Shown: positions 15,469 through 31,603 of the stretch, piece after piece | How the letters are laid out: each line of letters starts with the position of its first letter | How positions within the stretch are numbered: position 1 is the stretch's first letter | From: Patulibacter sp. | GTDB taxonomy: Bacteria; Actinomycetota; Thermoleophilia; Solirubrobacterales; Solirubrobacteraceae | Direction: 5' to 3' | DNA: 34,317 nt | Assembly (NCBI RefSeq): GCF_030655195.1 | Contig: NZ_JAURWA010000068.1 | Coordinates: 1 to 34,317 of the forward strand | Program-made: the position numbers and the translations under genes | The notes under the pieces: generated by a model | Told to the model about the DNA's origin: nothing | The model's input: only the letters and a program-made list of their open reading frames with translations | The model's database searches: none

Positions 15469-15475
15469 GGGCGGA

Positions 15476-15481
15476 AGCCTA
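15476..15481 (-). promoter_or_regulatory. TAGGCT -10 box of gmd
   Basis: On the minus strand TAGGCT lies 7 bases before the ATG at 15468. A -35 element would fall within the 14-bp tandem repeat at 15492-15519. Confidence 0.55.
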
Positions 15482-15491
15482 CGAGAGGACC

Positions 15492-15519
15492 GAGAACCGC
15501 GGATTGAGAACCGCGGATT
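15492..15519. repeat. Two tandem copies of a 14-bp repeat in a divergent promoter region
   Basis: GAGAACCGCGGATT occurs twice head to tail without a mismatch (15492-15505, 15506-15519). Each copy holds the palindromic core CCGCGG in a near-palindromic AACCGCGGATT. The position, overlapping the expected -35 of the gmd promoter and 70 bases from the opposite promoter, suggests a regulator-binding site. A simple replication duplication is the alternative. Confidence 0.6.
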
Positions 15520-15585
15520 GGCCGTCGGTTGGGCGCGCCCCGCTTTGCGACGTTTGAGGGGTGAGGCGAGACCGTGGCCCCTCGC

Positions 15586-15591
15586 TACGAT
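15586..15591 (+). promoter_or_regulatory. TACGAT -10 box of the zinc-ribbon methyltransferase
   Basis: TACGAT ends 6 bases before ATG 15598, the leaderless spacing found repeatedly here. It is the first promoter of the rightward second glycan block. Confidence 0.55.
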
Positions 15592-15597
15592 CGCCGC

Positions 15598-16476
15598 ATG
15601 CATCCGCAGATGACCTGCGTCTCCTGTGGCGGTTCCCCCGTCAAGGCGTTCGAGGCGACGGACGACTACCTCCGACGGGACGGTGTGGTCTTCACGTACA
15701 GCCGCTGCCCGGTCTGCGGGACGTACGCTCTCGTGAACAGGCCCGAGAACCTGGGCGACTATTACGCCGACGACGCGTACTACGACGGGACTGGCGATGC
15801 GTCACAGGATCACCTGCGCCGCGGGCTCCTCTCCACCTTCGCCCCGTGGGCAGGTGGCGGTCGCATGTTGGACATCGGCCCGGGGAACGGAGCACTCCTC
15901 CGCGAGGCGCGCAATCACGGGTTCACGGACCAATCCGCCGTCGAGCGCGACGCCCGGTCATGCGAGTTGATGCGCGGAGACGGTGTCTCCGTCGTCGAGA
16001 CCGCGGATCCGGTCGCCGGGCTCGACGGGGTCGAGCCGGCGGACGCGGTGGTCATGGCGCACGTGATTGAGCACGTCGAGGAGCCGATGGAACTCCTGAC
16101 GGCCGCAGCGTCCAAGGTAAAGCCGGGTGGCGTTCTGGTGGTCGCGACCCCAAACCCGGAATCGCTGTCGTTCAAAGTTTGTCGCTCCCGTTGGCGGCAC
16201 GTGGACGCCCCGCGGCACCTCTTCCTCCTGCCGCACGCCGTCGTCGCCGACCGTGCGCGGCGGGCCGGACTGGAGAACGTCCGCACTACGACGACCGATC
16301 CGTCGGGCCTCGAGTGCAACCGCGGTGCTTGGTGGCCGTGGGCGCTCAACGTGATGCCGACCAAGCGAAGCGGGCACAACCTCGACCGGGTGGTCCGTCG
16401 AAGCGCAGGCATTCTCGAGCGTCGCGGACTACGCGGGAGCACGTACACCGCGGTGTTCCGTCGTCCCCCGGCCTGA
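15598..16476 (+). CDS. SAM-dependent methyltransferase with N-terminal zinc ribbon
   Basis: A 292-residue class I methyltransferase of the type found in polysaccharide clusters. An N-terminal zinc ribbon is formed by C7/C10 (CVSC) and C37/C40 (CPVC). The SAM-binding motif [12 protein letters not shown] follows near residues 88-100, then [18 protein letters not shown] (motif II region) and [29 protein letters not shown] segment is common in methyltransferases acting on sugars. It probably O-methylates a glycan or nucleotide sugar; the target is unknown. If the pathway downstream makes a vinelose-like sugar, this enzyme could supply a 2-O-methyl group, which is speculation. Its base usage is visibly less GC-biased at third positions than the genes to its left, suggesting a transferred segment begins here. 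Confidence 0.85.
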
Positions 16477-16550: not shown

Positions 16551-17651
16551 GTGTCCGAGTTCGTGAATCCGCCGCAGTTCGGCGCCGTCGCCCCCGCTAT
16601 GTGGCGCGGGCGCCGCGTCCTCTTGACCGGGCACACCGGTTTCAAGGGCGCGTGGCTGTCGCTGTGGCTGCAGGCGCTGGGCGCGGAGGTCACGGGCTTC
16701 AGTAATGGGATCCCGACGGCGCCGTCGCTCTACGCGCTGGCCGACGTCGAGCCGGGCCTGACGAACATCACCGCCGATATCCGCGACCGCGAGGCAGTAA
16801 CTGCGGCGGTCCGCGACGCGCGGCCGGAGGTCGTGATCCACATGGCTGCGCAGCCGATGGTGCGCCGGTCGTTCGTGAATCCGCACGAGACGTACGAGAC
16901 GAACGTCATGGGCACCGTCAACGTCCTCGACGCGGTCCGCACGGTCGGCGCGGACACGGTGCGGGCGGTTGTGAACATCACATCGGACAAGGCGTACGAC
17001 AACCGTGAGCAGGGCCGCCCGTTCGTGGAGGACGACCCGATGGGCGGCCACGATCCTTACTCCAACTCGAAGGGCTGCGCGGAGCTCGTCACCGACGCAT
17101 TCCGGCGCTCGTACTTCTCCGGCGATGACGTTGGCCCGCGCGTGGCGAGCGTTCGTGCGGGCAACGTCATTGGCGGTGGCGACTGGGGCGAGGACCGTCT
17201 GGTGCCCGACGTTATGCGCGCGGTCTCGGCGGGGCGGCCGGTGCCGATCCGCAACCCCACGGCGATCCGGCCGTGGCAGCACGTCCTGAACCCACTCTCC
17301 GGTTACCTCGTGGTGGCCCAGAAGATCCTGGCCGGCAACCACGACGCGGCGTCGGGGTGGAACTTTGGGCCCGCGCAAGACGACGCGAAGCCGGTGTCAT
17401 GGATCGCTGATCGGCTGACGGAGCTCTGGCCCGATGAGCTGGCCTGGGAGATTGATCCGGGCCCCCATCCGCACGAGGCGCAGTTCCTGTCGCTGGACTC
17501 AACAAAAGCCCGGGAGGGCCTGGGCTGGCGGCCCCGGTGGGCGCTCGGGCAGACGCTCGAGTCGATCGTGCAGTGGCACCTCGGGCTGCGGGACGGTGCG
17601 GACGTCCGTGCACTGACGCTCGAGCAGATCCGTCTATTCTCGGCCGCATGA
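16551..17651 (+). CDS. rfbG: CDP-glucose 4,6-dehydratase
   Basis: A 366-residue extended SDR that dehydrates CDP-glucose to CDP-4-keto-6-deoxyglucose. The N-terminal LLTGHTGFKGAWLSLWLQ (24-41) is diagnostic of this enzyme. Further hallmarks are HMAAQPMVRRSF, ITSDKAYDN (143-151), Y170/K174 in YSNSKG, VRAGNVIGGGDW, and RPWQHVLNPLSGYL. Length agrees with the 355-370 usual for RfbG. The start is GTG 16551, set by a TAGCCT box 7 bases before it; the ORF continues upstream but only through shadow sequence. The stop overlaps the start of the cytidylyltransferase gene by ATGA. With the next gene it provides the committed steps of CDP-6-deoxyhexose synthesis. No 3-dehydrase (RfbH) follows, so a 3,6-dideoxy sugar is unlikely. 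Confidence 0.93.
   Translation: MSEFVNPPQFGAVAPAMWRGRRVLLTGHTGFKGAWLSLWLQALGAEVTGFSNGIPTAPSLYALADVEPGLTNITADIRDREAVTAAVRDARPEVVIHMAAQPMVRRSFVNPHETYETNVMGTVNVLDAVRTVGADTVRAVVNITSDKAYDNREQGRPFVEDDPMGGHDPYSNSKGCAELVTDAFRRSYFSGDDVGPRVASVRAGNVIGGGDWGEDRLVPDVMRAVSAGRPVPIRNPTAIRPWQHVLNPLSGYLVVAQKILAGNHDAASGWNFGPAQDDAKPVSWIADRLTELWPDELAWEIDPGPHPHEAQFLSLDSTKAREGLGWRPRWALGQTLESIVQWHLGLRDGADVRALTLEQIRLFSAA
17635..17640 (+). promoter_or_regulatory. TATTCT -10 box of rfbF inside the end of rfbG
   Basis: TATTCT lies in the last codons of rfbG and ends 7 bases before ATG 17648. This would let rfbF be transcribed separately as a leaderless mRNA in addition to the operon transcript. Confidence 0.5.
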
Positions 17652-18418
17652 AGGCCGTGATTCTCGCTGGGGGCCTCGGCTCGCGACTGAGCGAGGAGAC
17701 CTCCGTGCGTCCGAAGCCGATGGTGGAGATCGGGGGCAAGCCGATGCTCTGGCACATCATGAAGATCTATTCCGCGCACGGGATCAACGACTTCGTGGTG
17801 TGTCTGGGCTACAAGGGCTACGTCATCAAGGAGTGGTTCGCGAACTACGCGCTGCACACCTCCGACGTGACGTTCGACCTGCGCACGGGCGAGATGGAGG
17901 TCCACCACTCTACGACTGAGCCGTGGCGCGTGACGCTCGTCAACACCGGGGCGAACTCGATGACCGGCGGCCGCCTCGGGCGCGTCCTGCCGTACCTCGA
18001 CGACGAGGACTTCTGCTTCACCTACGGCGACGGTGTGGCCGACGTCGATCTGACCGCGTTGTTGGCGTTCCACAAGAGCCACGGCAAGCAGGCGACGGTC
18101 ACCGCGGTGCAGCCCGCCGGCCGCTTCGGCGCGCTGGACATCGACGGCGACGAGGTCAAGTCGTTCGAGGAGAAGCCGCGCGGCGACGGTGCGTGGACCA
18201 ACGGCGGGTTCTTCGTGCTCTCGCCGAAGGTCGCTTCGTACCTCGAGGGCGACGCGACGGTCTTCGAGCAGGGACCGCTCCGGGGTCTCGCCGCCGACGG
18301 CCAGCTCGCGTCGTACAAGCACACGGGTTACTGGCAGGCGATGGACACGCTGCGCGAGAAGCAGATGCTGCAAGAGCTGTGGGACTCCGGCGACGCGCCC
18401 TGGCGCGTGTGGTCCTAG
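17648..18418 (+). CDS. rfbF: Glucose-1-phosphate cytidylyltransferase
   Basis: A 256-residue nucleotidyltransferase that makes CDP-glucose from CTP and glucose-1-phosphate. Residues 5-13 read ILAGGLGSR, the NTP-binding loop, followed by RPKPMVEIGGKPMLWHI (K23 and K31 region) and YGDGVADVD, whose first aspartate binds the metal. RfbF-specific features include LGYKGYVIKEWF, the long VHHSTTEPWRVTLVNTG segment, AVQPAGRFGALDI, and GFFVLSPKV. Length is that of RfbF (about 257). ATGA overlap with rfbG shows a shared operon. Gene order (rfbG before rfbF) is reversed relative to enterobacteria. Confidence 0.94.
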   Translation: MKAVILAGGLGSRLSEETSVRPKPMVEIGGKPMLWHIMKIYSAHGINDFVVCLGYKGYVIKEWFANYALHTSDVTFDLRTGEMEVHHSTTEPWRVTLVNTGANSMTGGRLGRVLPYLDDEDFCFTYGDGVADVDLTALLAFHKSHGKQATVTAVQPAGRFGALDIDGDEVKSFEEKPRGDGAWTNGGFFVLSPKVASYLEGDATVFEQGPLRGLAADGQLASYKHTGYWQAMDTLREKQMLQELWDSGDAPWRVWS

Positions 18419-18457
18419 GACCGCGGTGACCGATCTGACGGCTGACGACTGTCGCTG

Positions 18458-19438
18458 ATGGGCGTCGGCAGCTCCGCACCTCTCGGCGTCGATGTGGCGA
18501 TCGTCGCGTATCGCCGCTGGGACCTGACCTCCAGTTGCCTCGACCACCTCGCGAGCCAGACGCGAGAGCACCGCGTCGTGGTGTGCGACAACGGCTGCGA
18601 CGAGGGCACTGCAGACCTCGTCCGGGAGCACTACCCCGACGTCGAGGTCCTGCGTCTCGAGCGGAACATGCCCTACGCGACTGCCTGCAACCGCGCCGTT
18701 GCTCAGGGTGAGCGCGACGTCATCGTGATGATGAACAACGACATCGACGCTCGGCCCGACTTCCTTGAGAGGCTCGTCGCCCCGCTCGAGTCGGATCCGA
18801 CGGTCGGATCGGTGTCTGGTCTTCTGATCGCGCCCGGCGAGCAGCGTATCGACAGCGTGGGCCTGGTCGCGGACCGAACGCTCTCGGCCTTCCCGCGGTG
18901 GGGCGGCGCCCACCCGTCGCAAGCCCGAGCCGATTCGCCCGTCCTGACCGGGCCGGCCGGCGCGGCGGCGGCCTTTCGACGGGCGGCGTGGGACGAGGTC
19001 GGCGGCCTCGACCAGCGGATCTTCGCCTACATGGAGGACTTCGACCTCGCCGTGCGGCTGCGCACCGCGGGCTGGGGTGCTGGGGCGGCGCTCGACGCCG
19101 TGGCCGTCCACATCGGGTCGGCGACGAACGTGCATCGGTCCGTGAACCAACGTCGCAACGGCGGGTTCGGTCGTGGATACGTCCTCCGTCGGTACGGCTT
19201 GCTTCGCACCAGGCTCGCCGCGCAGATCCTGGCGACCGAGGCCATCGTCGTCCTGGCCGATGTGGTCATCTCTCGCGATCTCGCCGCGCTGAAGGGCCGG
19301 ATCGCTGGGTGGCGGGCCGGGCGGGGACTTCCGCGTCACGCGATGCCGCCGGCGGCGGCGGTCGACGGCACGATCACGTTCAGGGACAGCATGCGCCTGC
19401 GTCGTGGCGTCTACTTCCCGGGCCAGGACTCGTCGTGA
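18458..19438 (+). CDS. Glycosyltransferase family 2 (rhamnosyltransferase-like)
   Basis: A 326-residue GT-A enzyme. VDVAIVAYRRWDLTSSCLDHL opens the nucleotide-binding fold, VVCDNGCDEGT follows, and MMNNDIDARPDFL contains the metal-binding DXD motif. GPAGAAAAFRRAAWDEVGGLDQRIFAYMEDFDLAVRLR holds the acceptor-side ED motif. This architecture is that of WbbL-type rhamnosyl and related transferases. The C-terminal part has a run LAAQILATEAIVVLADVVI that could associate with the membrane. The start ATG 18458 overlaps the TGA of a preceding short frame in TGATG, and there is no ribosome site. It overlaps the next gene by GTGA. Donor unknown; the CDP-branched sugar is a candidate. Confidence 0.85.
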   Translation: MGVGSSAPLGVDVAIVAYRRWDLTSSCLDHLASQTREHRVVVCDNGCDEGTADLVREHYPDVEVLRLERNMPYATACNRAVAQGERDVIVMMNNDIDARPDFLERLVAPLESDPTVGSVSGLLIAPGEQRIDSVGLVADRTLSAFPRWGGAHPSQARADSPVLTGPAGAAAAFRRAAWDEVGGLDQRIFAYMEDFDLAVRLRTAGWGAGAALDAVAVHIGSATNVHRSVNQRRNGGFGRGYVLRRYGLLRTRLAAQILATEAIVVLADVVISRDLAALKGRIAGWRAGRGLPRHAMPPAAAVDGTITFRDSMRLRRGVYFPGQDSS

Positions 19439-20757
19439 CCGACGTGCGTCCGCGCGTGCTGTTCATCTCCCCCGATGCGGTCGGCAAACAGATGGCCGGG
19501 CTCGGTATCCGGTACACGGAACTCGCCGCGACGCTGACGGACATCGCTGACGTCGTCATCGCGACCGGTGCCCCCGAGCGCGACGCCTCGGTCCTGGCTT
19601 CCGGGGCCCGGGTCGTCGGCTACGAGCCCCACGCCGCGGACGCTCTGCGCGAGTGGATCGCCTGGGCGCACACCATCGTTACGCCCCCGCAGTGGCCGGT
19701 CGTCACGCGGTGGTTGCGCCGTTCGGGCAAGCGGGTCGTCTTCGATCTCTACGACCCCGAAACGTTGGAGACCCTTGAACTCTTCTCGCGGGGCCGCCCC
19801 GGGATCCGTCGCCTGATGGTCGCGCTCACGCTCGACCGGCTCCACGACGCGCTGCGGACGGGGCACCACTTCATGTGCGCCAGCGAGGCCCAGAGGGACC
19901 TCTGGACGGGCGTCCTGCTCGGCGGACGTGCCCTGGGGCCGAAGACCTACGACGCGGACCGCAGCCTGCGATCGGTCATCGATCTGGTGCCTTTCGGGCT
20001 TCCCTCGACCCCCCCGACGGTGTCGGGCGGGGGCGGCCCGCGTGCAGCCTTCCCGCAGATCGCCCCTGATGACGAGATCGTGCTCTGGAACGGCGGGATC
20101 TGGCCGTGGCTAGACGCTCCGACTGCCGTTCGCGCGATGGCCCGTGTGGCGCAGGCTCGGCCCGGCGTTCGCTTGGTCTTCATGGGGCGCGGGTCCGGCT
20201 TTGCAGGGCAGGCCGCCGTCGAGGAGGCGCAGGCCGTAGCTCGCGCGGCGGGCGTGCTCGACAGCACGGTGCTGTTCTCGGATAGATGGGTGCCCTACGC
20301 CGAGCGGTCCGACTGGCTCCTTGCCGCCGACTGCGGGATCGCGACCGCCGGAGACCACCTCGAGACGCGCTATGCCTTTCGGACACGGATGCTTGACTGC
20401 TTCTGGGCGGGATTGCCCGTTGTCTGCACCGCCGGGGACGATCTGGCCGCGCGAGTGGGACGGGACGGCCTCGGCGCGGTCTCCCCGGTCGGGGACGACG
20501 AGTCGCTCGCGATGGCGATCGTCGGGGTGCTGGAGCGCGGACGCGTCGGTCACGGGCCCGCGCTGGCCGAGGCCGCGCGTGACTACGCCTGGCCCGTCGT
20601 AAGCACACCGTTGCGGCGGTGGGTGCTCGGGCCCAAACCGCGGCTTAGTCCCGCCCGGACCGCGGTACGACTGCCAGGGCACCTCGGGCGCGAGGTCGCC
20701 TACCGAGCGGTGCGGGCGAGCCTGGCCAGGCTGCGAATCGACTGGCCTTCCCTGTGA
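19435..20757 (+). CDS. GT-B glycosyltransferase (GT4-like)
   Basis: A 440-residue glycosyltransferase. The N-terminus (RPRVLFISPDAVGKQMAGLGIRY) resembles GT4 proteins that begin ISP...AGLGIRYWELA. Mid-protein residues VVFDLYDPETLE and HHFMCASEAQRDLW belong to the acceptor domain. The donor domain begins EIVLWNGGIWPWLDAPTAVRAM and continues VRLVFMGRG. Its ending ETRYAFRTRMLDCFWAGLPVV is a recognisable signature of a GT4 subgroup found in actinobacterial surface-glycan clusters. GTG 19435 forms GTGA with the preceding gene, and the stop forms GTGA with the next, so three glycosyltransferase-like genes are tightly coupled. Sugar specificity is not predictable. Confidence 0.83.
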   Translation: MTDVRPRVLFISPDAVGKQMAGLGIRYTELAATLTDIADVVIATGAPERDASVLASGARVVGYEPHAADALREWIAWAHTIVTPPQWPVVTRWLRRSGKRVVFDLYDPETLETLELFSRGRPGIRRLMVALTLDRLHDALRTGHHFMCASEAQRDLWTGVLLGGRALGPKTYDADRSLRSVIDLVPFGLPSTPPTVSGGGGPRAAFPQIAPDDEIVLWNGGIWPWLDAPTAVRAMARVAQARPGVRLVFMGRGSGFAGQAAVEEAQAVARAAGVLDSTVLFSDRWVPYAERSDWLLAADCGIATAGDHLETRYAFRTRMLDCFWAGLPVVCTAGDDLAARVGRDGLGAVSPVGDDESLAMAIVGVLERGRVGHGPALAEAARDYAWPVVSTPLRRWVLGPKPRLSPARTAVRLPGHLGREVAYRAVRASLARLRIDWPSL

Positions 20758-21683
20758 CTCCGCGAATTGCCGTCGTGCACCTGGTCCGCAAAGGCAACGG
20801 CGTAGCGCCGTTCGAACGGTTCATGGCGTCCTACAACGCGCACCCGGCGGGCGCTGAGCACGATCTCGTTCTGCTCTTCAAGGGGTACGAGGGGGGGGAG
20901 AACGAGCTTCTTGCGCACCTTGACCGTGCGCCTGAGATGACGAAGCACCTCGTGGTTGGGGACAACGGGTTCGACCTCACGGCCTACCGCCAGGCCGCCG
21001 ACCGCCTCCCGCATGAAAGAGCCTGCTTCCTGAACTCGTTCAGTCGGGTTCTGCACCCGGGGTGGCTCGGGCTTCTGGCCGACGCATTCGATGACCCGTC
21101 CGTCGGCCTGGCGGGCGCCACGGGGTCCTGGGAGAGCACCGTCTCGCTCGGTCTGCGCCAGCTCGGCGACAGCCTCTCGTACCCCGGGGCGTTCGCCACC
21201 CGCGCCGCGCTCTTGGATGAGCTGCGGCACGAGTCCGGTGACTCGGCGCCAAATCCCATTCTCGAATGGCTCTTCGTTGCGAAGGAGACTGTCCGCAGCG
21301 CCCGCGAGTTCAGACGTTTCCCGTCTGCGCACCTGCGCACCAATGCGTTCCTCATCGAACGCGAACGTTTTCTCGGCGTACCGATGCCTGCTCTGTCGAC
21401 CAAGCGCGACGCGCTGGTTTTTGAGAACGGACGGCGTGGACTCACCGCTACCGTCCGCGCGCAGGGCCTGCGATCGGTCGTAGTCGACCGTACGGGAGTG
21501 GCACGCGGCGAGGCTGACTGGGCGGAAGGGAACGTGTTCTGGCAGGACGACCAACAGGATTTGCTCGTCGCCGATAACCAGACAGACGCGTACGATGCCG
21601 CGGGCGCCCGGGTCCGCGCGCTGCGCTCCCGCAAAGCCTGGGGGGCGTCCGCCCGCGGCGTTGCTACCCCCTCCTTTCCATGA
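20754..21683 (+). CDS. Uncharacterised glycosyltransferase-like protein
   Basis: A 309-residue protein I cannot place in a named family with confidence. It opens with a Rossmann-like strand (IAVVHLVRKGNGVAPFERFMASY). DNGFDLTAYRQAADRL (70-85), then CFLNSFSRVLHPGWLGLLADAF and VGLAGATGSWES, resemble the acceptor and donor segments of RgpF/rhamnan-synthesis and related GT-A-like proteins. An SAHLRTNAFLIERE segment lies around residues 190-205. There is no signal peptide or clear membrane helix. It lies between a GT4 and the flippase, coupled to the GT4 by GTGA, so a role in repeat-unit assembly is likely. It has less GC-biased codons than the flanks of the window. Confidence 0.7.
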   Translation: MTPRIAVVHLVRKGNGVAPFERFMASYNAHPAGAEHDLVLLFKGYEGGENELLAHLDRAPEMTKHLVVGDNGFDLTAYRQAADRLPHERACFLNSFSRVLHPGWLGLLADAFDDPSVGLAGATGSWESTVSLGLRQLGDSLSYPGAFATRAALLDELRHESGDSAPNPILEWLFVAKETVRSAREFRRFPSAHLRTNAFLIERERFLGVPMPALSTKRDALVFENGRRGLTATVRAQGLRSVVVDRTGVARGEADWAEGNVFWQDDQQDLLVADNQTDAYDAAGARVRALRSRKAWGASARGVATPSFP

Positions 21684-21712
21684 TGACCCTCTCGAGAACT
21701 GCGGCCTGATCC

Positions 21713-23209
21713 GTGTCCAGCGGACCCATTCCGCCCGGCGTCTTCGAGACCGCTGGTCCGGCCCCTGACCTGATCGACAGCGACGAAGCGGGTGGTGCTG
21801 CGCTTCGTGGCGGTGCACTGCGGACCGTGGGGTTCGCGGCGGGGCTGATGTTGTCGCTGGTCTCGGCACCGCTCGTCATCCGCCACCTCGGCGACGCCGA
21901 GTTCGGTCGGTACTCCGCAGTGCTCGCGGTGGTGGCGATCGTCGGTGGACTCACGGAGGGTGGTGTGAACACCGTCGCGCTTCGAGAGCTCGCTGTGGCG
22001 CGGGATCGGGATCAGCGGGATCGCCTGATGGGCGACCTGCTCGGGCTCCGTCTCGTGCTAACTGCCACCGGCGTCATCCTCGCCGTCGGGTTCGCGGTGA
22101 TTGCCGGATACGGGCCCTCACTGGTCGCCGGCACGGCGCTCGCCGGGCTCGGTCTTATCGGGGCGCTCGCGCAGTCCCTCCTGGCGTCCGTACTACAGAG
22201 TCAGCTCCGCTTCGGCTGGGCCACGATCATCGATCTCTTGCGGCAGATCGTCACGACCGGCCTGATCGTGGTCCTCGTCATCGGCGACGCCGGGGTCGTT
22301 CCGTTCCTGGCGGTGTCTATTCCTGCCGGGCTTGCGTCGCTTGCGGTGACCATCGTCCTCATCCGCGGGAGTATCAGCCTGCGCCCAGCTTTCCATCCGA
22401 ACCGTTGGCTCCCGTTGTTGCGAGACACGGCCGTCTTCGCGGTCGCCGTGGCCGTCAACACGCTGTACTTCCGTATCACCCTGGTCCTCATGTCGGTGGT
22501 GGCAGCGGCAGTTGAGACTGGGTATTTCGCGGTGTCTTTCCGCGTGATGGAGGTCCTTGTGAACCTCCCTGCGATCCTGCTCGGAGCCGCCTTCCCGATC
22601 ATCTCGCGCACGGTCTGGACGGACCGCCCGCGGTTTGAGCAGACGACGGCCCGCATGTTCACGCTCGCGTTGATGCTCGGAACCCTGATCTCGGTCGCGC
22701 TGGTGCTTGGTGCCCCGTTTGCGATCGAGGTGCTCGCCGGTTCGCAGGGCCACCCGTCGACGGCCGTCCTCCAGATTCAGGCGGCGGGGATCATCGCGAC
22801 GTTCCTCGCGTCGGCCACGGGCTATCCGCTGCTGAGCCTGCACCGCAACAAAGAGACCCTGGCTGCCAACCTCGTGTGTCTCGCAACGGCGATCGCGCTG
22901 ACGCTCGCGCTCACCCCGACCTGGGGCGCGAAGGGGGCCGCGGTGTCCGCCGTCAGCGCAGAGTTCTTCCTCGCCGCGGTCACGACGTTCGCCCTGGTCC
23001 GTCGCGGGGGGGTGCGTGTTCCGCTGATCGAGGTGCCGATCGTGCTACTCGCCGGTCTGGCGGCGCTCGGGGTCGGTCTGGCGGTCGGCATCCATCCAGC
23101 TGTCCAGGCCGCGGTGGGGAGCCTCGCTTTCCTCCTCATACTGCAGCTCACAGGGCGCTTCCCGGCCGAGGTGCGGGAACTCCTCGCCCGGCGCGTTCCG
23201 GGGCGCTGA
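21713..23209 (+). CDS. Wzx-type polysaccharide flippase
   Basis: A 498-residue polytopic membrane protein of the MOP superfamily, expected to flip undecaprenyl-diphosphate-linked repeat units across the membrane. Hydrophobic segments run the length of the protein, roughly twelve to fourteen. The N-terminal segment ALRGGALRTVGFAAGLMLSL, then LVIRHLGDAEFGRYSAVLAV and LTEGGVNTVALREL, is typical of Wzx flippases. GTG 21713 gives 30 soluble residues before the first helix; a start nearer that helix cannot be excluded because neither a TANNNT box nor a ribosome site is visible. It lies 29 bases after the preceding gene. It implies a Wzy-dependent or teichuronic-type pathway, but no polymerase is found in the window. 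Confidence 0.88.
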   Translation: MSSGPIPPGVFETAGPAPDLIDSDEAGGAALRGGALRTVGFAAGLMLSLVSAPLVIRHLGDAEFGRYSAVLAVVAIVGGLTEGGVNTVALRELAVARDRDQRDRLMGDLLGLRLVLTATGVILAVGFAVIAGYGPSLVAGTALAGLGLIGALAQSLLASVLQSQLRFGWATIIDLLRQIVTTGLIVVLVIGDAGVVPFLAVSIPAGLASLAVTIVLIRGSISLRPAFHPNRWLPLLRDTAVFAVAVAVNTLYFRITLVLMSVVAAAVETGYFAVSFRVMEVLVNLPAILLGAAFPIISRTVWTDRPRFEQTTARMFTLALMLGTLISVALVLGAPFAIEVLAGSQGHPSTAVLQIQAAGIIATFLASATGYPLLSLHRNKETLAANLVCLATAIALTLALTPTWGAKGAAVSAVSAEFFLAAVTTFALVRRGGVRVPLIEVPIVLLAGLAALGVGLAVGIHPAVQAAVGSLAFLLILQLTGRFPAEVRELLARRVPGR

Positions 23210-23243
23210 CGACGCGCATCGACTCTCGACGCCAGCCCTGGGC

Positions 23244-23249
23244 TACGGT
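23244..23249 (+). promoter_or_regulatory. TACGGT -10 box of a GT2 gene
   Basis: TACGGT ends 6 bases before ATG 23256, consistent with leaderless transcription of the two tandem GT2 genes. Confidence 0.5.
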
Positions 23250-23255
23250 TCGCCC

Positions 23256-24215
23256 ATGCACGCGCCACGCGCATCCGCGGTCGTCTTGAGCTACGACGGC
23301 CGCGACCTTCTGGAGTCGTTTCTCCCTTCGGTGCTTGCCCAGGACTACGGCGACTTCGAGGTCGTCGTGGTTGACAACGGGTCGACCGACGGATCCGTGG
23401 GCATGTTGCGGGAACGATGGCCCGAGGTGCGGATCGTCGCGCTCCCCGAGAACGTCGGGGTCACCGCTGCGCTGAACGCCATGGTTCGCGCAGGGGAGGG
23501 CGAGTACGTCGCACTGCTCAACAACGACGTCGAGCTCGAGCCGTCCTGGCTGCGCATCCTCGTCGGCGTGATGGACCGTCGTCCGGAGCTGGCGTCCTCG
23601 GCTGGAAAGCTTCTCCAGCACCGCAACCGAGGGCGGATTGACCGCGTCGGCGACGAGGTTCGTTGGTCCAGCGCCTGTTTCGGGCGTGGCAGTGGGGACC
23701 TCGACAGCGGGCAGTTCGAGACCGGTGAGGAAGTCTTCACGGTCGGCGGCGCAGCCGCCGTCTACCGCAGGTCAGCGTTTGCGCGGGTCGGGCCGTTTGA
23801 CGATGATTTTTTCGCGTACGTCGAAGACGTCGACTGGGGCTTTCGGGCCCGTCTCGCGGGGTACGCCGCTTGGTACGAGCCGACGGCCGTCGGCTACCAC
23901 CTGGGAGGCGGCACGCTCGGCGGCATCAACCCCTTCTCTCTCTACCACCTGCGTCGCAACCAGCTCTGGTTGGTCCTCAAGAACTACCCTGCCGCGAGTC
24001 TTCTGCGCCACGGGCCTTCGGTACTTCTGTTCAACCTCGCTGGCCTCGGGATGGCGGTGCGGCGGCGGCAGGTGGGCCTTGTCCTAAAGGCGTACCGTGA
24101 TGCTTTGCGTGGCGTTCGCCCGGCCCTGCGCAAGCGCCGCACCATTCAGCGGAGCCGCACTGTCGGTTCGCGCGAGCTGGAGCGGTTCATCGAGCGAGCG
24201 GGTCGACCGTGGTGA
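23256..24215 (+). CDS. Glycosyltransferase family 2 (tandem copy A)
   Basis: A 319-residue GT-A glycosyltransferase. SAVVLSYDGRDLLESFLPSV starts the nucleotide-binding domain, and DNGSTDGSVGMLRERWPEV, then ALLNNDVELEPSWL with the DXD-type motif at 89-92, follow. GGAAAVYRRSAFARVGPFDDDFFAYVEDVDWGFRARLAG carries the ED motif. The C-terminus has a helical, basic tail (RKRRTIQRSRTV). It is clearly paralogous to the next gene over its whole length, including the tail. Rhamnosyl- or related 6-deoxyhexosyltransferases of the WbbL/RfbN type share this layout. The stop overlaps the next start. Confidence 0.86.
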   Translation: MHAPRASAVVLSYDGRDLLESFLPSVLAQDYGDFEVVVVDNGSTDGSVGMLRERWPEVRIVALPENVGVTAALNAMVRAGEGEYVALLNNDVELEPSWLRILVGVMDRRPELASSAGKLLQHRNRGRIDRVGDEVRWSSACFGRGSGDLDSGQFETGEEVFTVGGAAAVYRRSAFARVGPFDDDFFAYVEDVDWGFRARLAGYAAWYEPTAVGYHLGGGTLGGINPFSLYHLRRNQLWLVLKNYPAASLLRHGPSVLLFNLAGLGMAVRRRQVGLVLKAYRDALRGVRPALRKRRTIQRSRTVGSRELERFIERAGRPW

Positions 24216-25189
24216 GCGCGCAGCGGCTGCCCACGCCGGAGCGTCCGCGGGTGGTGGTGACGGTCGCCACTTTCAACGGACGGCATCTGTTGGAGACCTT
24301 CCTGCCGTCCGTCGAGCAGCAGACGTTTCGTGAATTCCGCGTCGTGGTCGTCGACGACGCGTCGTCCGACGACACCGTCGAATGGCTGACGCATGTTTGG
24401 CCGGACGTCGAGATAGTCGGGCTTGAACAGAACGGCGGGGTCACCAGAGCATTCAACGTCGGTATTCGCGCAGCCTGGGACGGCGAGATGATCGGGCTGT
24501 TCAACAACGACATGGAGCTCGCGCCCGAGTGCCTCCAGCAGTTGGTGGACGCTCTCGATCAGTACCCCGGTGCGGGTTCGGTCGGCGCAAAGCTCCTGAA
24601 CTACTACGAGCGCGATGTCATCGATGGTGCGGGAGACCTCTTCGACTGGGCCGGCACGGGTACTCGCCGCGGTCACGGAGAGCAGGACACCGGTCAGTAC
24701 GACGAGGCGCGTGAGATCTTCGGCGCTTGTGCCGGGGCTGCGCTCTACCGTCGAACTGCCTTCGAGCAGGTTGGCCTCTTCGATGAGCGGTTCTATGCTT
24801 TCTTCGAGGATGTTGACTGGAGTCTGCGGGCCCAACTTGCGGGGCGTCCGGCAAGGTACGCGCCGTCGGCCGTCGCGTTCCACATGGGCAGCGCGACGCT
24901 CGGTCGTGGGATGACGGACTTCACCCGCTACCAGCTGACTCGTAACTCGTTGTGGATTCTGGCGAAGGACTACCCGGTGTCGGCGCTAGTCCGGCATAGC
25001 CCACGGATCCTGTATGTCCAGGCGGCAGCCTTCGTCGTGGCCGTTCGAGGGCGGCAGTTGAGGGTGTGGATGCGGGCGACACGGGATGCGTTCAGGGCGT
25101 TGCCAGCGGTACTGCGGGACCGACGCGAGGTGCAGCGCACCCGGACCGCGCCGCTGCGGGAGGTCGAAGAGATCGTGGCGGCCCGCTGA
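24212..25189 (+). CDS. Glycosyltransferase family 2 (tandem copy B)
   Basis: A 325-residue GT-A glycosyltransferase, paralogous to the preceding one. Matching landmarks are VVVTVATFNGRHLLETFLPSV, VVVDDASSDDTVEWL, GLFNNDMELAPECL (NND at 98-100), GACAGAALYRRTAFEQVGLFDERFYAFFEDVDWSLRAQLAG, and the tail RDRREVQRTRTAPLREVEEI. The start is GTG 24212, which makes a GTGA overlap with copy A; an adjacent in-frame GTG at 24209 would add one residue. The duplicate pair has probably specialised for different linkages or acceptors in the repeat unit. GC bias at third positions is low for this window. Confidence 0.86.
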   Translation: MSAQRLPTPERPRVVVTVATFNGRHLLETFLPSVEQQTFREFRVVVVDDASSDDTVEWLTHVWPDVEIVGLEQNGGVTRAFNVGIRAAWDGEMIGLFNNDMELAPECLQQLVDALDQYPGAGSVGAKLLNYYERDVIDGAGDLFDWAGTGTRRGHGEQDTGQYDEAREIFGACAGAALYRRTAFEQVGLFDERFYAFFEDVDWSLRAQLAGRPARYAPSAVAFHMGSATLGRGMTDFTRYQLTRNSLWILAKDYPVSALVRHSPRILYVQAAAFVVAVRGRQLRVWMRATRDAFRALPAVLRDRREVQRTRTAPLREVEEIVAAR

Positions 25190-25253
25190 CAGGACGCTCC
25201 TAGCAATCCGCTGGGGCCGCGGCGACGGCGGATCGCCCGCCGAGCCCGCCGGT

Positions 25254-25259
25254 TAGCAT
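25254..25259 (+). promoter_or_regulatory. TAGCAT -10 box of the sugar C-methyltransferase operon
   Basis: TAGCAT ends 8 bases before ATG 25268. It would start the three-gene unit C-methyltransferase, RmlC-like, reductase. The preceding bases from 25190 hold no gene. Confidence 0.55.
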
Positions 25260-25267
25260 GCCGAGCG

Positions 25268-26497
25268 ATGCCCGCTCCCTGCCGGTTCTGCGCCACTCCA
25301 GTCGAGCACACGTTCTCTGACCTCGGGATGTCCCCGATGGCGAACAGCTACCTGACGCCCGAGCAGGGCAACGCGATGGAGCCGTTCTACCCGCTGCACG
25401 CGCTGGTCTGCACGAAGTGCAAGCTCGTCCAGCTGGAGGAGTTCCAGTCCGGCGAGGAGATCTTCTCCGACTACGCGTACTTCTCGTCGTACTCGACGTC
25501 GTGGCTGGAGCATTGCAAGCGCTACACCGGCGAGATGACCGAGCGTTGGGGTCTCGACGGGTCGAGCAAGGTCGTTGAGATCGCGTCCAACGACGGCTAC
25601 CTGCTGCAGTACTTCCAGGAGCGTGACGTGCCGGTCCTGGGCGTCGAGCCGGCCGCGAACGTCGCGAGGGTCGCGGAGGAGAAGGGCGTCCCGACGGTCG
25701 TCAAGTTCTTCGGCGTCGACACGGCCACCGAGCTGGCCCAGGACGGCAAGGCCGACCTGCTGCTGGGCAACAACGTGATGGCCCACGTTCCGGACCTCAA
25801 CGACTTCGTCGGCGGCATGAAGGTGTTGCTGAAGGACGACGGCGTCATCACGGTCGAGTTCCCGCACCTGCTGAAGCTCGTCGAGCTGAACCAGTGGGAC
25901 ACGATCTACCACGAGCACTTCTGCTACTTCTCGTTCCTCGTGGTGAGCCGGGTATTCGAGGCCCATGGTCTGCGCCTGTTCGACGTGGAGGAGCTCCCGA
26001 CGCACGGAGGCTCGCTGCGCATCTACGGCTGCCACCAGGACGACCCGAGCAAGCCCGAAACGGACCGCGCGAACGAGCTCGTCCAGCGCGAGATCGACCT
26101 CGGCTACGACGACATCGAGTTCTACGCCGCGTACGCCCGCCGGGTCGAGGCGGAGAAGCGCGACATTGTCGAGTTCCTCACGCAGCTCAAGCGCGACGGC
26201 AAGCGGATCATCGGCTACGGCGCGCCGGCGAAGGGCAACACGCTCCTGAACTACTGCGGCATCCGTGGTGACTTCCTCGACTACACGGTCGACTTGAACC
26301 CGCACAAGCAGGACCAGCTGCTGCCCGGCACGCACATCCCAATCCGCTCGCCCGACGTGATCAAGGACGACAAGCCCGACGTCGTATTCATCCTTCCGTG
26401 GAACCTGAAGGACGAGATCGTCGAGCAGCTCGCGTATATCCGCGAGTGGGGCGGCCAGTTCGCCGTCCGCGCCCCCGAGATCCAGCTCATCCCGTGA
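25268..26497 (+). CDS. NDP-hexose C-3 methyltransferase (TylC3-like)
   Basis: A 409-residue SAM-dependent sugar C-methyltransferase of the TylCIII family, which methylates C-3 of a nucleotide-linked 4-keto-6-deoxy sugar. Three domains are visible. First is a zinc-binding N-terminus with C5/C8 and C48/C51, between them DLGMSPMANSYL, the family hallmark. Second is a SAM domain with VEIASNDGYLLQYF (103-116), GVEPAANVA, NNVMAHVPDLNDF and YHEHFCYFSF with the catalytic-region histidines. Third is a C-terminal domain with ELPTHGGSLRIYG, IIGYGAPAKGNTLLNYCGI and DLNPHKQDQLLPGTHIPI. Given rfbF and rfbG nearby and no other nucleotidyltransferase, the substrate is probably CDP-4-keto-6-deoxyglucose. The stop overlaps the RmlC-like gene by GTGA. 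Confidence 0.9.
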   Translation: MPAPCRFCATPVEHTFSDLGMSPMANSYLTPEQGNAMEPFYPLHALVCTKCKLVQLEEFQSGEEIFSDYAYFSSYSTSWLEHCKRYTGEMTERWGLDGSSKVVEIASNDGYLLQYFQERDVPVLGVEPAANVARVAEEKGVPTVVKFFGVDTATELAQDGKADLLLGNNVMAHVPDLNDFVGGMKVLLKDDGVITVEFPHLLKLVELNQWDTIYHEHFCYFSFLVVSRVFEAHGLRLFDVEELPTHGGSLRIYGCHQDDPSKPETDRANELVQREIDLGYDDIEFYAAYARRVEAEKRDIVEFLTQLKRDGKRIIGYGAPAKGNTLLNYCGIRGDFLDYTVDLNPHKQDQLLPGTHIPIRSPDVIKDDKPDVVFILPWNLKDEIVEQLAYIREWGGQFAVRAPEIQLIP

Positions 26498-27033
26498 GGC
26501 TCGACCCGACGCCCCTCGCGGGGGCGTTCGTTGTCGAGCAGGAGCGTCGCGCCGACGAGCGCGGCTACTTCGCCCGCACCTTCGACGCTGAGGTCTTCGC
26601 TGCTGCAGGCGGCGACGGCCGGGTCGCGCAGTGCAACACGTCCTTCAACACGAGGGCCGGCACGCTGCGCGGCATGCACTTCCAGGCTGCGCCCTACGGC
26701 GAGGCCAAGCTCGTGCGCTGTACCCGCGGCGCGATCTTCGATGTGCTGATCGACCTGCGCGACGACTCGATGACCCGCCTGCAGTGGTTCGGAGCCGAGC
26801 TCAGCCAGGACAACGGCCGAGGTCTGTTCATCCCCGATGGCTTCGCCCACGGGTTCCAGACGTTGACCGATGATGCTGAGGTCAGCTACCAGATGAGCGT
26901 GCCGTTCCAGGACGGCGCGGGGCGCGGCGTCCGCTGGGACGACCCGGCGTTCGGCGTCCAGTGGCCCGATGCTCCGGTCGGCGGACGCACGATCAGCGAG
27001 CGCGACGCGGCGTACTCCGACTTCGCGACATGA
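26494..27033 (+). CDS. RmlC-like sugar epimerase with an altered catalytic tyrosine
   Basis: A 179-residue cupin of the dTDP-4-dehydrorhamnose 3,5-epimerase family. Motifs are GYFARTF near residue 24, LRGMHFQ with H62, K72 in GEAKLVRC, IPDGFAHGFQTL, and WDDPAFGVQWP with D149/D150. In my hand alignment with the canonical copy at 28.0 kb and remembered RmlC sequences, the position of the catalytic tyrosine (the YxP region, Y136 in the other copy) is F138 here. That could limit it to a single C-5 or C-3 epimerisation, or reflect a branched substrate in which C-3 cannot epimerise. It sits between the C-methyltransferase and reductase genes with GTGA and ATGA overlaps, so it acts on the C-methylated CDP sugar. 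Confidence 0.85.
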   Translation: MRLDPTPLAGAFVVEQERRADERGYFARTFDAEVFAAAGGDGRVAQCNTSFNTRAGTLRGMHFQAAPYGEAKLVRCTRGAIFDVLIDLRDDSMTRLQWFGAELSQDNGRGLFIPDGFAHGFQTLTDDAEVSYQMSVPFQDGAGRGVRWDDPAFGVQWPDAPVGGRTISERDAAYSDFAT

Positions 27034-27950
27034 GGCGCGTCCTTGTCACCGGCGCGACGGGGTTCGTCGGGCGCCACGCGCTGGGCGCCCTCGTGTCGCG
27101 GGGGTACGAGGTCCATGCGGTTTCGTCGAAGGGGCCGACGGACGACAGCCCCGAGGGCGTCGTGTGGCACGTCGCCGACCTACTCGACCCGGTCGCTGGC
27201 CCCGCGCTCGTCTCCGAGGTCGCACCGACGGACCTGCTGCACCTCGCCTGGTACGCCGAGCCCGGCGCGTTCTGGGGGTCGCCGGAGAATCTGCGCTGGG
27301 TGGCCGCGTCGCTGGCCCTGCTGCGGGCGTTCGCGGACGCCGGGGGAACGCGCGCGGTGCTCGCCGGTACCTGCGCGGAATACGCGTGGGAGAACGAGAC
27401 GCACTGCGTCGAGGGTTCGACGCCGCTCAAGCCCGCGACGCTCTACGGTGCCGCGAAGCACGGACTGCACGTCGTCGCCGAGGCGTTCGCAGCGGACGCC
27501 GGCATCAGTCTCGCGTGGGGTCGCATCTTCTTCCTCTTTGGGCCGCACGAGGACTCACGGCGTCTCGTGAGCTCTGTCGCGCGGGCGGTCATCGGTGGGA
27601 AGCGTGCCGAGACGTCGCACGGCGAGCAGGTGCGGGATTTCCTCTACGCCCCGGACTTGGCTGACGCCTTTGCCGCGCTCCTCGCGAGCGAGGTGACGGG
27701 CGCCGTCAATGTAGCCTCTGGCGAGCCGGTGGCGATCCGCGATGTCGTGCAGGCAATCGGGGACTCCGCGGGCCACCCGGAGCTGCTCGCAATCGGTGCA
27801 CGTCCTACCAACTCGAGCGAGCCCGCCGTTCTCACCGCGGACGTGTTTCGTCTATGCGACGAGGTTGGCTGGACTCCGCCGGCGACGCGCGAAGACCGGG
27901 TGTCGACCACCGTCGAGTGGTGGCTCACGACACTGGGCGAGACGGCCTGA
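27030..27950 (+). CDS. NAD(P)-dependent nucleotide-sugar 4-ketoreductase (SDR)
   Basis: A 306-residue extended SDR. VLVTGATGFVGRHALGAL opens with the cofactor loop, and an AGTCAEYAWE segment takes the serine/threonine position. LYGAAKHGL contains YxxxK, and GRIFFLFGPHEDSRRLV follows. VRDFLYAPDLADAFAALL and VNVASGEPVAIRDV complete the fold. Similar proteins end CDP-sugar pathways as 4-ketoreductases or epimerases (RfbJ/tyvelose-type enzymes are relatives). As the last gene of the C-methyltransferase operon, reduction of the C-4 keto group to finish the branched CDP-6-deoxy-3-C-methylhexose is the inferred role. ATG 27030 forms an ATGA overlap with the RmlC-like gene. Confidence 0.84.
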   Translation: MRRVLVTGATGFVGRHALGALVSRGYEVHAVSSKGPTDDSPEGVVWHVADLLDPVAGPALVSEVAPTDLLHLAWYAEPGAFWGSPENLRWVAASLALLRAFADAGGTRAVLAGTCAEYAWENETHCVEGSTPLKPATLYGAAKHGLHVVAEAFAADAGISLAWGRIFFLFGPHEDSRRLVSSVARAVIGGKRAETSHGEQVRDFLYAPDLADAFAALLASEVTGAVNVASGEPVAIRDVVQAIGDSAGHPELLAIGARPTNSSEPAVLTADVFRLCDEVGWTPPATREDRVSTTVEWWLTTLGETA

Positions 27951-28013: not shown

Positions 28014-28571
28014 ATGGAGATCCGCGAAACGACCTTGCCGGACGCGAAGCTCGTGGTCCCGCGGGTGTTCCCCGACGACCGGGGCTTCTTCGCCGAGACG
28101 TTCCGCGAGAGCGCCTTGGCCGACGCGGGCATCCACGACCGGTGGATCCAGGACAACCACTCGCGCTCGAGCTTCGGCGTCGTCCGCGGCCTCCACTTCC
28201 AGATCGGCGAGGGCTGCGCCAAGCTCGTGCGCTGCGGCCGCGGCCACATCTGGGACGTGATCGTCGACCTCCGCAAGGGCTCGCCGACCTACGGCAAGTG
28301 GGAGGGCTTCGATCTGACCGACGAGAACATGCACGCCCTGTACGTCCCCGTCGGCTTCGCCCACGGGTTCGCCGTGAAGAGCGAGATCGCCGACGTGCTC
28401 TACAAGCAGACGGGGTACTACTCCGGCGACGTCGAGCGGGGCATCGCCTACGACGACCCCGACGTCGGGGTGCAGTGGCCGCTGACGGCAGACGAGATCC
28501 AGGTGTCGGAGCGGGACGCGACCGGGCCCCGCCTGGCGACGGTGGCGGACACGCTGTCGTTCGTGTACTGA
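28014..28571 (+). CDS. rmlC: dTDP-4-dehydrorhamnose 3,5-epimerase (RmlC family, canonical residues)
   Basis: A 185-residue cupin of the RmlC family. It keeps the full active-site set: H61 in VRGLHFQ, K70 in CAKLVRC, Y136 in KQTGYYSGD, and D147/D148 in AYDDPDVGVQWP. VPVGFAHGFAV and DLRKGSPTYGKWEGF are also typical. Enzymes of this type epimerise C-3 and C-5 of dTDP-4-keto-6-deoxyglucose for L-rhamnose synthesis. No rmlA, rmlB or rmlD is in the window, so either these lie elsewhere or the protein acts on the CDP-linked pathway. Its own TANNNT box and the 62-base gap separate it from the C-methyltransferase operon. Confidence 0.9.
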   Translation: MEIRETTLPDAKLVVPRVFPDDRGFFAETFRESALADAGIHDRWIQDNHSRSSFGVVRGLHFQIGEGCAKLVRCGRGHIWDVIVDLRKGSPTYGKWEGFDLTDENMHALYVPVGFAHGFAVKSEIADVLYKQTGYYSGDVERGIAYDDPDVGVQWPLTADEIQVSERDATGPRLATVADTLSFVY

Positions 28572-31471: not shown

Positions 31472-31603
31472 CCGCGGCACGACGGCTCGTCGACGGGGCT
31501 CGGAGGGCACTGTCGCCGCGCCGGTCGGGTGCGCTCTCAGCACGGGTAGAGGTCCGCTGGGCGTCGCGCGGCACCACCGAGCGGACCTGCGAGGATCCGC
31601 GTG

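What the first reader, a model, noticed from the sequence alone, without database searches (positions are those of the whole stretch)
16551..27950. Predicted pathway to a CDP-linked 6-deoxy-3-C-methylhexose (vinelose/virenose-like branched sugar)
The window holds rfbF and rfbG, a TylC3-type sugar C-methyltransferase, an RmlC-like epimerase and a terminal SDR reductase, the last three coupled by GTGA and ATGA overlaps. No RfbH-type 3-dehydrase and no other nucleotidyltransferase is present. The simplest chain is Glc-1-P to CDP-Glc, to CDP-4-keto-6-deoxy-Glc, 3-C-methylation, epimerisation and C-4 reduction. CDP-vinelose (6-deoxy-3-C-methyl-2-O-methyl-talose) is known from Azotobacter; a CDP route of this kind in an actinobacterial surface glycan would be notable. 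The adjacent methyltransferase at 15.6 kb could add an O-methyl group.
Basis: partly seen in the sequence, partly recalled or inferred. Interest (0 to 1): 0.75.

Follow-up and report, generated by a model that had tools for sequence, protein, structure and literature searches.

The report
CDP-linked branched methyl sugar gene cassette
A bacterium related to the soil genus Solirubrobacter carries, inside a surface-polysaccharide gene cluster, enzymes that most likely build a rare branched (C-methylated) deoxy sugar on a CDP carrier; the same gene set turns up in several other phyla, so it is a new member of a known but little-studied kind.

Summary
RfbG (16551-17651) and RfbF (17648-18418) pass their curated cut-offs. 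The 3-C-methyltransferase (25268-26497), RmlC-like epimerase (26494-27033) and SDR (27030-27950) are real and overlap as described.

A CDP route is best supported. The genome has one RfbF and one RfbG over cut-off and one such methyltransferase; its rmlA/rmlD/rmlB set lacks only rmlC, which the second RmlC would supply. Fourteen of 107 relative loci hold all five gene types, eleven in one order and strand, in five phyla; RmlA/RmlB never appear nearby without RfbF/RfbG.

Against: 51 of 107 loci show no RfbF/RfbG nearby, and the window's RfbF/RfbG group with copies from genomes lacking the methyltransferase. Substrate, epimerase specificity and product are untested. Recalled stereochemistry favours L-talo (vinelose skeleton) or L-manno over D-virenose. 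Parts of the set are in print for Synechocystis, Sinorhizobium and, by citation, Azotobacter.

The parts
16551..17651 (+). RfbG, CDP-glucose 4,6-dehydratase (GTG start)
   Evidence: TIGR02622 459.1 bits over cut-off 278.45; the only solved chains under E 1e-20 are CDP-glucose 4,6-dehydratases 1rkx and 1wvg; TSDK and YSNSK fit the [ST]DKxnYx3K fingerprint given for CDP-Glc dehydratases in PMC8987622 (passage)
17648..18418 (+). RfbF, glucose-1-phosphate cytidylyltransferase
   Evidence: TIGR02623 443.2 bits over cut-off 300.25; the only distinct solved chain under E 1e-20 is 1tzf, glucose-1-phosphate cytidylyltransferase; only one over cut-off in the genome
25268..26497 (+). Sugar 3-C-methyltransferase (TylC3/MtmC/TcaB9 type)
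   Evidence: PF08421, Methyltransf_23, PF08484; MtmC 4rv9 E 3.4e-85, KijD1 5t64 3.8e-75, TcaB9 3ndi 2.7e-63 (the name KijD1 is recalled); only PF08421 match in the genome
26494..27033 (+). RmlC-like epimerase 1, read here as a C5-epimerase of the C-methylated 4-keto sugar (inferred)
   Evidence: PF00908 198.5 bits; TIGR01221 152.5, below cut-off 155.75; His, Lys, Tyr, Asp of the RmlC active site kept; GTGA overlap with the methyltransferase
27030..27950 (+). Extended SDR, read here as the C4-ketoreductase (inferred)
   Evidence: PF01370 132.5 bits; GATGFVG, GTCAEY, YGAAK; no Asp-Glu/Asp-Lys dehydratase pair; ATGA overlap with RmlC-like 1
28014..28571 (+). RmlC-like epimerase 2, probably the RmlC of dTDP-rhamnose synthesis (inferred)
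   Evidence: TIGR01221 209.8 bits over cut-off; one of only two PF00908 matches in the genome, both in this window; rmlA, rmlD and rmlB stand on contig C110
15574..16476 (+). Class I SAM methyltransferase, role unknown (possible O-methylation)
   Evidence: PF13489 E 6.4e-18; best solved match only E 1.5e-6
18458..25189 (+). Glycosyltransferases (18458, 19435, 23256, 24209), an unassigned ORF (20754) and a Wzx-type flippase (21713-23209)
   Evidence: PF00535, PF13692, PF01943 matches; no Pfam match for 20754-21683

Best explanation
These genes make a CDP-linked 6-deoxy-3-C-methylhexose for a surface polysaccharide. RfbF joins CTP and glucose-1-phosphate to CDP-glucose; RfbG converts it to CDP-4-keto-6-deoxy-glucose (both steps supported by specific family matches). 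The TylC3-type enzyme then methylates C3 with SAM (family match; the CDP substrate is inferred from linkage). Because C3 then carries no hydrogen, the coupled RmlC-like enzyme, if it acts after methylation, can only epimerise C5 (inferred). The SDR then reduces the C4 ketone (inferred). If C3 is inverted on methylation, as recalled for TylC3, the product is 6-deoxy-3-C-methyl-L-talose (the skeleton of vinelose) or 6-deoxy-3-C-methyl-L-mannose, depending on the face of C4 reduction. My confidence is about 0.7 in a CDP-linked C3-methylated 6-deoxyhexose and about 0.4 in the L-talo/L-manno configuration.
For: Cut-offs passed by RfbF and RfbG and closest solved chains of exactly those functions; CDP fingerprint TSDK in RfbG against STDE in the genome's RmlB and SSSE in Gmd (fingerprints from a passage of PMC8987622). 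Full-length match to solved sugar 3-C-methyltransferases. One PF08421 methyltransferase, one RfbF and one RfbG over cut-off in the genome. The rmlA/D/B set on contig C110 lacks only an RmlC. 14 of 107 loci hold all five gene types (one search gives 15 with one duplicate; listed), 11 of them in the order RfbF-RfbG-CMT-RmlC-SDR on one strand, from Actinomycetota, Cyanobacteriota, Pseudomonadota, Nitrospinota and Planctomycetota. RfbF or RfbG lies within 6 kb in 56 of 107; RmlA/RmlB in 3 of 107, never without RfbF/RfbG (single reference sequences, so divergent RmlA/B could be missed). In the family, 17 of 19 methyltransferase loci of at least 590 bits have RfbG over cut-off on the same contig within 8 kb (hand count); 17 of 18 such genomes against 41 of 128 others have RfbG, Fisher p 3.7e-7. 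In Synechocystis, deleting the rfbC (slr0985) that shares an operon with rfbF and a putative methyltransferase did not impair rhamnose synthesis (PMC12285223, abstract and passages).
Against: 51 of 107 loci show no RfbF/RfbG within 6 kb at these thresholds, some for lack of flank; 26 of 75 loci with 4 kb on each side (duplicates included) have only a weaker RfbF-like gene, which in one annotated record is still called glucose-1-phosphate cytidylyltransferase but stands among other genes. In the window RfbG/RfbF are about 7 kb from the methyltransferase, and their nearest rows in the trees are copies from genome G381 (no methyltransferase match) and, for RfbG, G504 (only a weak match), so the pair may serve another sugar as well or instead. 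One family genome (G448, 84% complete) has methyltransferase, RmlC and SDR but no RfbG over cut-off; two further loci at 532-543 bits (G455, G471) also lack it. The 590-bit limit was chosen after seeing the list, and the Fisher test ignores relatedness. In Synechocystis the rfbC deletions changed the amounts of released and capsular polysaccharide but not much the sugar composition, and the slr1610 deletion left the O antigen unchanged; neither passage mentions a C-methyl sugar, and the authors read slr1610 as a general EPS methyltransferase. No substrate was tested. Catalytic residues cannot tell the epimerase specificities apart (PMC9095892 passage).
Confidence: 0.7

Rival explanations
1. 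The methyltransferase operon works on a dTDP sugar: RmlA/RmlB from contig C110 supply dTDP-4-keto-6-deoxyglucose, and RfbF/RfbG make a separate CDP sugar.
For: RmlA and RmlB over cut-off exist in the genome; the sugar C-methyltransferases among the solved chains are antibiotic-pathway enzymes, recalled to use dTDP sugars; window RfbF/RfbG group with copies from genomes without the methyltransferase.
Against: Of 107 loci, 3 have RmlA/RmlB within 6 kb and these 3 also have RfbF/RfbG; strong RfbG association in the family; the window enzyme lies in a set of rows with CDP-type neighbours, far from MtmC and KijD1 (a quick tree that warns of long branches for these two).
Confidence: 0.15
2. CDP route, but the RmlC-like enzyme acts before methylation (at C3 or at C3 and C5), giving another configuration such as L-ido or L-altro, or D-gulo/D-allo if C5 is not epimerised.
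For: An RmlC-like CDP-6-deoxy-D-xylo-4-hexulose epimerase, WbcA (5buv), is listed in PMC9095892 (passage); the window epimerase keeps the catalytic His and Tyr.
Against: The gene is translationally coupled behind the methyltransferase and follows it in most loci listed; gene order is weak evidence for reaction order.
Confidence: 0.1
3. The RfbF/RfbG pair and the methyltransferase operon belong to two unrelated sugars that share one polysaccharide cluster.
For: About 7 kb separation; RfbF/RfbG without the methyltransferase in other genomes and differing gene content around the relatives.
Against: Apart from RmlB no second NDP-glucose 4,6-dehydratase passes its cut-off in the genome; the five gene types stand together across phyla.
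Confidence: 0.05

Closest known systems
CDP-vinelose of Azotobacter vinelandii, with its rfbFGC cluster
   Same: A CDP-linked 6-deoxy-3-C-methyl sugar (recalled); an rfbF-rfbG-rfbC arrangement in Azotobacter is cited in PMC3769361 from Hausman 1998, of which only the title was seen
   Different: The Azotobacter locus was not read here; whether it holds the methyltransferase and SDR is not known to me; vinelose is also 2-O-methylated (recalled)
Synechocystis PCC 6803 slr0983-slr0984-slr0985-slr1610
   Same: rfbF, rfbG, rfbC and a putative C-3 methyltransferase in one cluster (PMC3769361 passages); slr1610 deletion changes EPS and adherence; slr0985 not needed for rhamnose (PMC12285223)
   Different: Gene order differs; no SDR of the window's type is named in the passages seen; sequences were not compared here; product unknown
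Sinorhizobium meliloti 1021 SMb21416-SMb21417-SMb21418 (ddhA-ddhB-NDP-hexose 3-C-methyltransferase)
   Same: RfbF, RfbG and C-methyltransferase listed in a row (PMC4053727 passage) and found in a row in L174
   Different: No RmlC-like or SDR relative of the window's genes found in the fetched 19 kb
MtmC, KijD1, TcaB9 (sugar C-methyltransferases of antibiotic pathways)
   Same: Full-length homology
   Different: They use dTDP sugars (recalled); MtmC and KijD1 fall outside the window's set in the tree
CDP-6-deoxyhexose pathway with WbcA, Yersinia enterocolitica
   Same: A CDP-4-keto-6-deoxyhexose epimerised by an RmlC-like enzyme (WbcA as listed in PMC9095892; the pathway is recalled)
   Different: No C-methyltransferase (recalled); WbcA (5buv) is a more distant match than RmlC enzymes, E 8.4e-23

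Membership tests
CDP-glucose / CDP-4-keto-6-deoxyglucose module (RfbF, RfbG) | Both proteins over the equivalog cut-offs TIGR02623 and TIGR02622 | tested here: met
   443.2 against 300.25 and 459.1 against 278.45 bits
CDP-glucose / CDP-4-keto-6-deoxyglucose module (RfbF, RfbG) | [ST]DKxnYx3K fingerprint of CDP-Glc 4,6-dehydratase | tested here: met
   TSDK and YSNSK in RfbG; fingerprint from a PMC8987622 passage
NDP-sugar 3-C-methyltransferases (TylC3/MtmC/TcaB9) | PF08421 zinc domain, SAM domain, PF08484 C-terminal domain in one chain | tested here: met
NDP-sugar 3-C-methyltransferases (TylC3/MtmC/TcaB9) | Full-length homology including the Y-[HD]-E-H stretch | tested here: met
   alignments to 4rv9 and 5t64; that this stretch is catalytic is recalled
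NDP-sugar 3-C-methyltransferases (TylC3/MtmC/TcaB9) | C3-methylation of a CDP-4-keto sugar | not testable with these tools
   needs an enzyme assay
RmlC (dTDP-4-dehydrorhamnose 3,5-epimerase) | Equivalog cut-off TIGR01221, gene at 26494-27033 | tested here: not met
   152.5 against 155.75 bits; narrowly missed
RmlC (dTDP-4-dehydrorhamnose 3,5-epimerase) | Equivalog cut-off TIGR01221, gene at 28014-28571 | tested here: met
   209.8 bits
CDP-3,6-dideoxyhexose pathway | RfbH 3-dehydrase (NF011936) | tested here: not met
   best 113.3 against 423 bits in the whole, 95% complete genome; no control genome passed the cut-off either
CDP-vinelose pathway | Product 6-deoxy-3-C-methyl-L-talose on CDP | not testable with these tools
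   configuration is inferred only
CDP-vinelose pathway | Same gene set in Azotobacter vinelandii | not tested
   the one scan of named genomes kept 80 loci, none titled Azotobacter

The most novel reading that the evidence does not exclude
A clade of 3-C-methyltransferases specific for CDP sugars, with RfbF, RfbG, an RmlC-like C5-epimerase and a dedicated SDR, forms a five-gene cassette spread over at least five phyla that makes CDP-6-deoxy-3-C-methyl-L-talose (vinelose skeleton); genes annotated as rfbC/rmlC in such clusters are then misnamed, which would explain why deleting slr0985 leaves rhamnose intact in Synechocystis.
Probability: 0.4. Interest if true: 0.6.

Novelty: new member of a known kind. 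Interest (0 to 1): 0.42.

Why it matters
If true, it gives candidate genes for a branched CDP sugar of the vinelose kind, turns a recurring but unassigned gene set into a testable pathway, and warns that 'dTDP-rhamnose epimerase' labels beside rfbF and rfbG can be wrong. A C-methyl sugar is a chemical marker that could be looked for in the glycans of culturable Solirubrobacter strains.

Tried and rejected
A diagnostic Tyr-to-Phe change in the RmlC-like gene was considered: the changed residue is a second tyrosine that varies (Y, F or H) among the relatives aligned, while the first one is kept, so it tells nothing about specificity. The expectation that RfbF/RfbG of the window would group with methyltransferase-linked copies was tested and not met: the label is clustered on the trees overall (9 changes against a shuffled mean of 16.8 for RfbG, 7 against 13.0 for RfbF), but the window's own copies sit beside unlinked ones. 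The SDR at 31601-32623 was considered as a second dehydratase: its motif is SDT, neither SDK nor SDE, so it is not counted as one, although relatives with SDK stand directly between RfbF and the methyltransferase in L057 and L105. An RfbH-type dideoxy sugar was rejected. The word 'vinelose' has no hit in the paper library. In what I saw of them no paper assigns this gene set to a sugar, but the library holds only open-licence papers and only passages were read. No structure was predicted and no fold search was run.
Full report
What is there. The window is contig C122 of a 4.55 Mb, 95% complete genome whose methyltransferase is closest to those of Solirubrobacterales. On the + strand stand a SAM methyltransferase (15574-16476), RfbG (16551-17651), RfbF (17648-18418), two glycosyltransferases (18458, 19435), an ORF without Pfam match (20754), a flippase (21713-23209), two more glycosyltransferases (23256, 24209), then the coupled trio C-methyltransferase (25268-26497), RmlC-like 1 (26494-27033) and SDR (27030-27950), and a second RmlC (28014-28571). 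A GDP-mannose 4,6-dehydratase (14503-15603, minus strand) just passes its cut-off, 433.1 against 415. All five genes named in the finding are confirmed with their overlaps.

Enzyme identities. RfbF and RfbG are about as sure as sequence allows: over curated cut-offs, and the only distinct solved chains under E 1e-20 are glucose-1-phosphate cytidylyltransferase 1tzf and CDP-glucose 4,6-dehydratases 1rkx and 1wvg. RfbG shows TSDK, the acid-base pair that PMC8987622 (passages) gives for CDP-glucose dehydratases; the genome's RmlB shows STDE and its Gmd SSSE. The methyltransferase aligns over its whole length with MtmC (4rv9) and KijD1 (5t64) and matches TcaB9. The RmlC-like protein keeps His, Lys, Tyr and Asp but narrowly misses the RmlC cut-off. 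The SDR has GATGFVG and YGAAK, and TCA where dehydratases have D-E or D-K, as a reductase may; its closest solved relatives are diverse SDRs, so its reaction is inferred.

Rest of the genome. PF08421 finds this methyltransferase alone. RfbF over cut-off: one. RfbG over cut-off: one, with 13 of 27 candidates scored. RmlB over cut-off: one, on C110, beside RmlA (479.3 bits) and RmlD (287.4 bits), both over cut-off. PF00908 finds only the two RmlC-like genes of this window. The simplest split is that the second RmlC completes dTDP-rhamnose and the first serves the CDP sugar; this is inference, and the genome is incomplete. No RfbH over cut-off, without a positive control.

Relatives. Of these 119, 109 have a methyltransferase of at least 330 bits, 107 after dropping two duplicates. 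Fourteen of the 107 hold RfbF, RfbG, methyltransferase, RmlC-like and SDR (15 with one duplicate), 11 of them in that order on one strand; in compact cases (L043, L059, L062, L085) they span 4.5-4.7 kb. Phyla: Actinomycetota (nine loci, two of them unnamed), Cyanobacteriota (one), Pseudomonadota (two), Nitrospinota (one), Planctomycetota (one). RfbF or RfbG is within 6 kb in 56 of 107; RmlA or RmlB in 3 of 107, always with RfbF or RfbG. In a quick tree of 110 rows the window sits in a set of 12 Solirubrobacterales-type rows (SH-aLRT 100), 11 of them with RfbG (L068 without), within a set of 56 (SH-aLRT 96); MtmC and KijD1 are far outside on long branches. Rows with a strong RfbF neighbour also lie outside the 56 (L112, L143, L144, L147, L155, L158-L163), so the link to RfbF is wider than that set, and rows inside it are not all linked.

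Family level. Among 146 genomes of the family, 43 have any match and 18 have one or two loci of at least 590 bits, 19 loci in all. Of the 19, 17 have RfbG over cut-off on the same contig within 8 kb, one has it on another contig (G508), one not at all (G448) (hand count). Seventeen of 18 such genomes against 41 of 128 others have RfbG over cut-off (Fisher p 3.7e-7; not corrected for relatedness, limit chosen after the fact). Of the seven other genomes of the window's genus, one has a weak match (E 3.6e-7) and six none, so the locus is variable.

Results against. RfbF/RfbG also occur without the methyltransferase: RfbG in 41 of 128 family genomes. Trees of RfbG (53 rows) and RfbF (68 rows) place the window's copies beside unlinked copies from G381 and, for RfbG, G504. 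The pair is thus a module that seems to be reshuffled between clusters, and it may feed another sugar. A second context of the methyltransferase, with only a weaker RfbF-like gene, accounts for 26 of 75 loci with 4 kb on each side; in one annotated plasmid it stands with PIG-L and DUF4910 genes. It is probably a different sugar.

Product. Starting from CDP-4-keto-6-deoxy-D-glucose, C3 methylation with inversion (recalled for TylC3) gives the D-allo series; C5 epimerisation gives L-talo or L-manno after C4 reduction; without it, D-gulo (D-virenose) or D-allo. [quoted passage not shown] PMC3539893 proposes a dTDP route to D-virenose and GDP routes, one of them with epimerisation to L-virenose (passages), so an epimerase does not exclude every virenose. 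The coupled epimerase favours a vinelose-type skeleton. That CDP-vinelose comes from Azotobacter is recalled; the library has no paper with the word.

What is in print. PMC4053727 (one passage) lists SMb21416-21418 of Sinorhizobium meliloti as ddhA, ddhB and NDP-hexose 3-C-methyltransferase. PMC3769361 (passages) describes Synechocystis slr0983-slr0985 and slr1610 and cites an Azotobacter rfbFGC cluster (only that title seen); the slr1610 deletion is flocculent, adheres to glass and has altered EPS but an unchanged O antigen. [quoted passage not shown] My reading would explain slr0985, but I did not compare its sequence, and no C-methyl sugar is mentioned in what I saw. Hence: a new member of a known kind, with an unassigned product and a clear test.

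Noticed in passing
window 31601-32623: SDR related to NDP-sugar dehydratases with motif SDT instead of SDK or SDE; relatives with SDK stand between RfbF and the methyltransferase in L057 and L105.
   Followed up: partly
window 28014-28571 and G000 contig C110:14571-18562: The genome's rmlA, rmlD and rmlB stand together without rmlC; the only RmlC over cut-off is in this window, next to the C-methyl sugar operon.
   Followed up: partly
L056 5585-13086, L060 6713-15025: Clusters with RfbF, an FAD oxidoreductase-like protein, an SDR, the same methyltransferase, RmlC and a peptidase-like protein (names by eye) but no RfbG: perhaps another unassigned CDP sugar.
   Followed up: no
L175 2157-9695 (Agrobacterium pusense pAt1): Methyltransferase with a weak RfbF-like gene (annotated glucose-1-phosphate cytidylyltransferase), PIG-L deacetylase, DUF4910 protein and glutamate-1-semialdehyde aminomutase: a second kind of context.
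   Followed up: partly
window 20754-21683: 309-codon ORF in the polysaccharide cluster with no Pfam match; a relative (153 bits) occurs near the same cassette in L044.
   Followed up: no
window 22000-26000: G+C falls to 65.5-67.4% from 72-76% in the first 14 kb, common for exchanged surface-polysaccharide genes.
   Followed up: no
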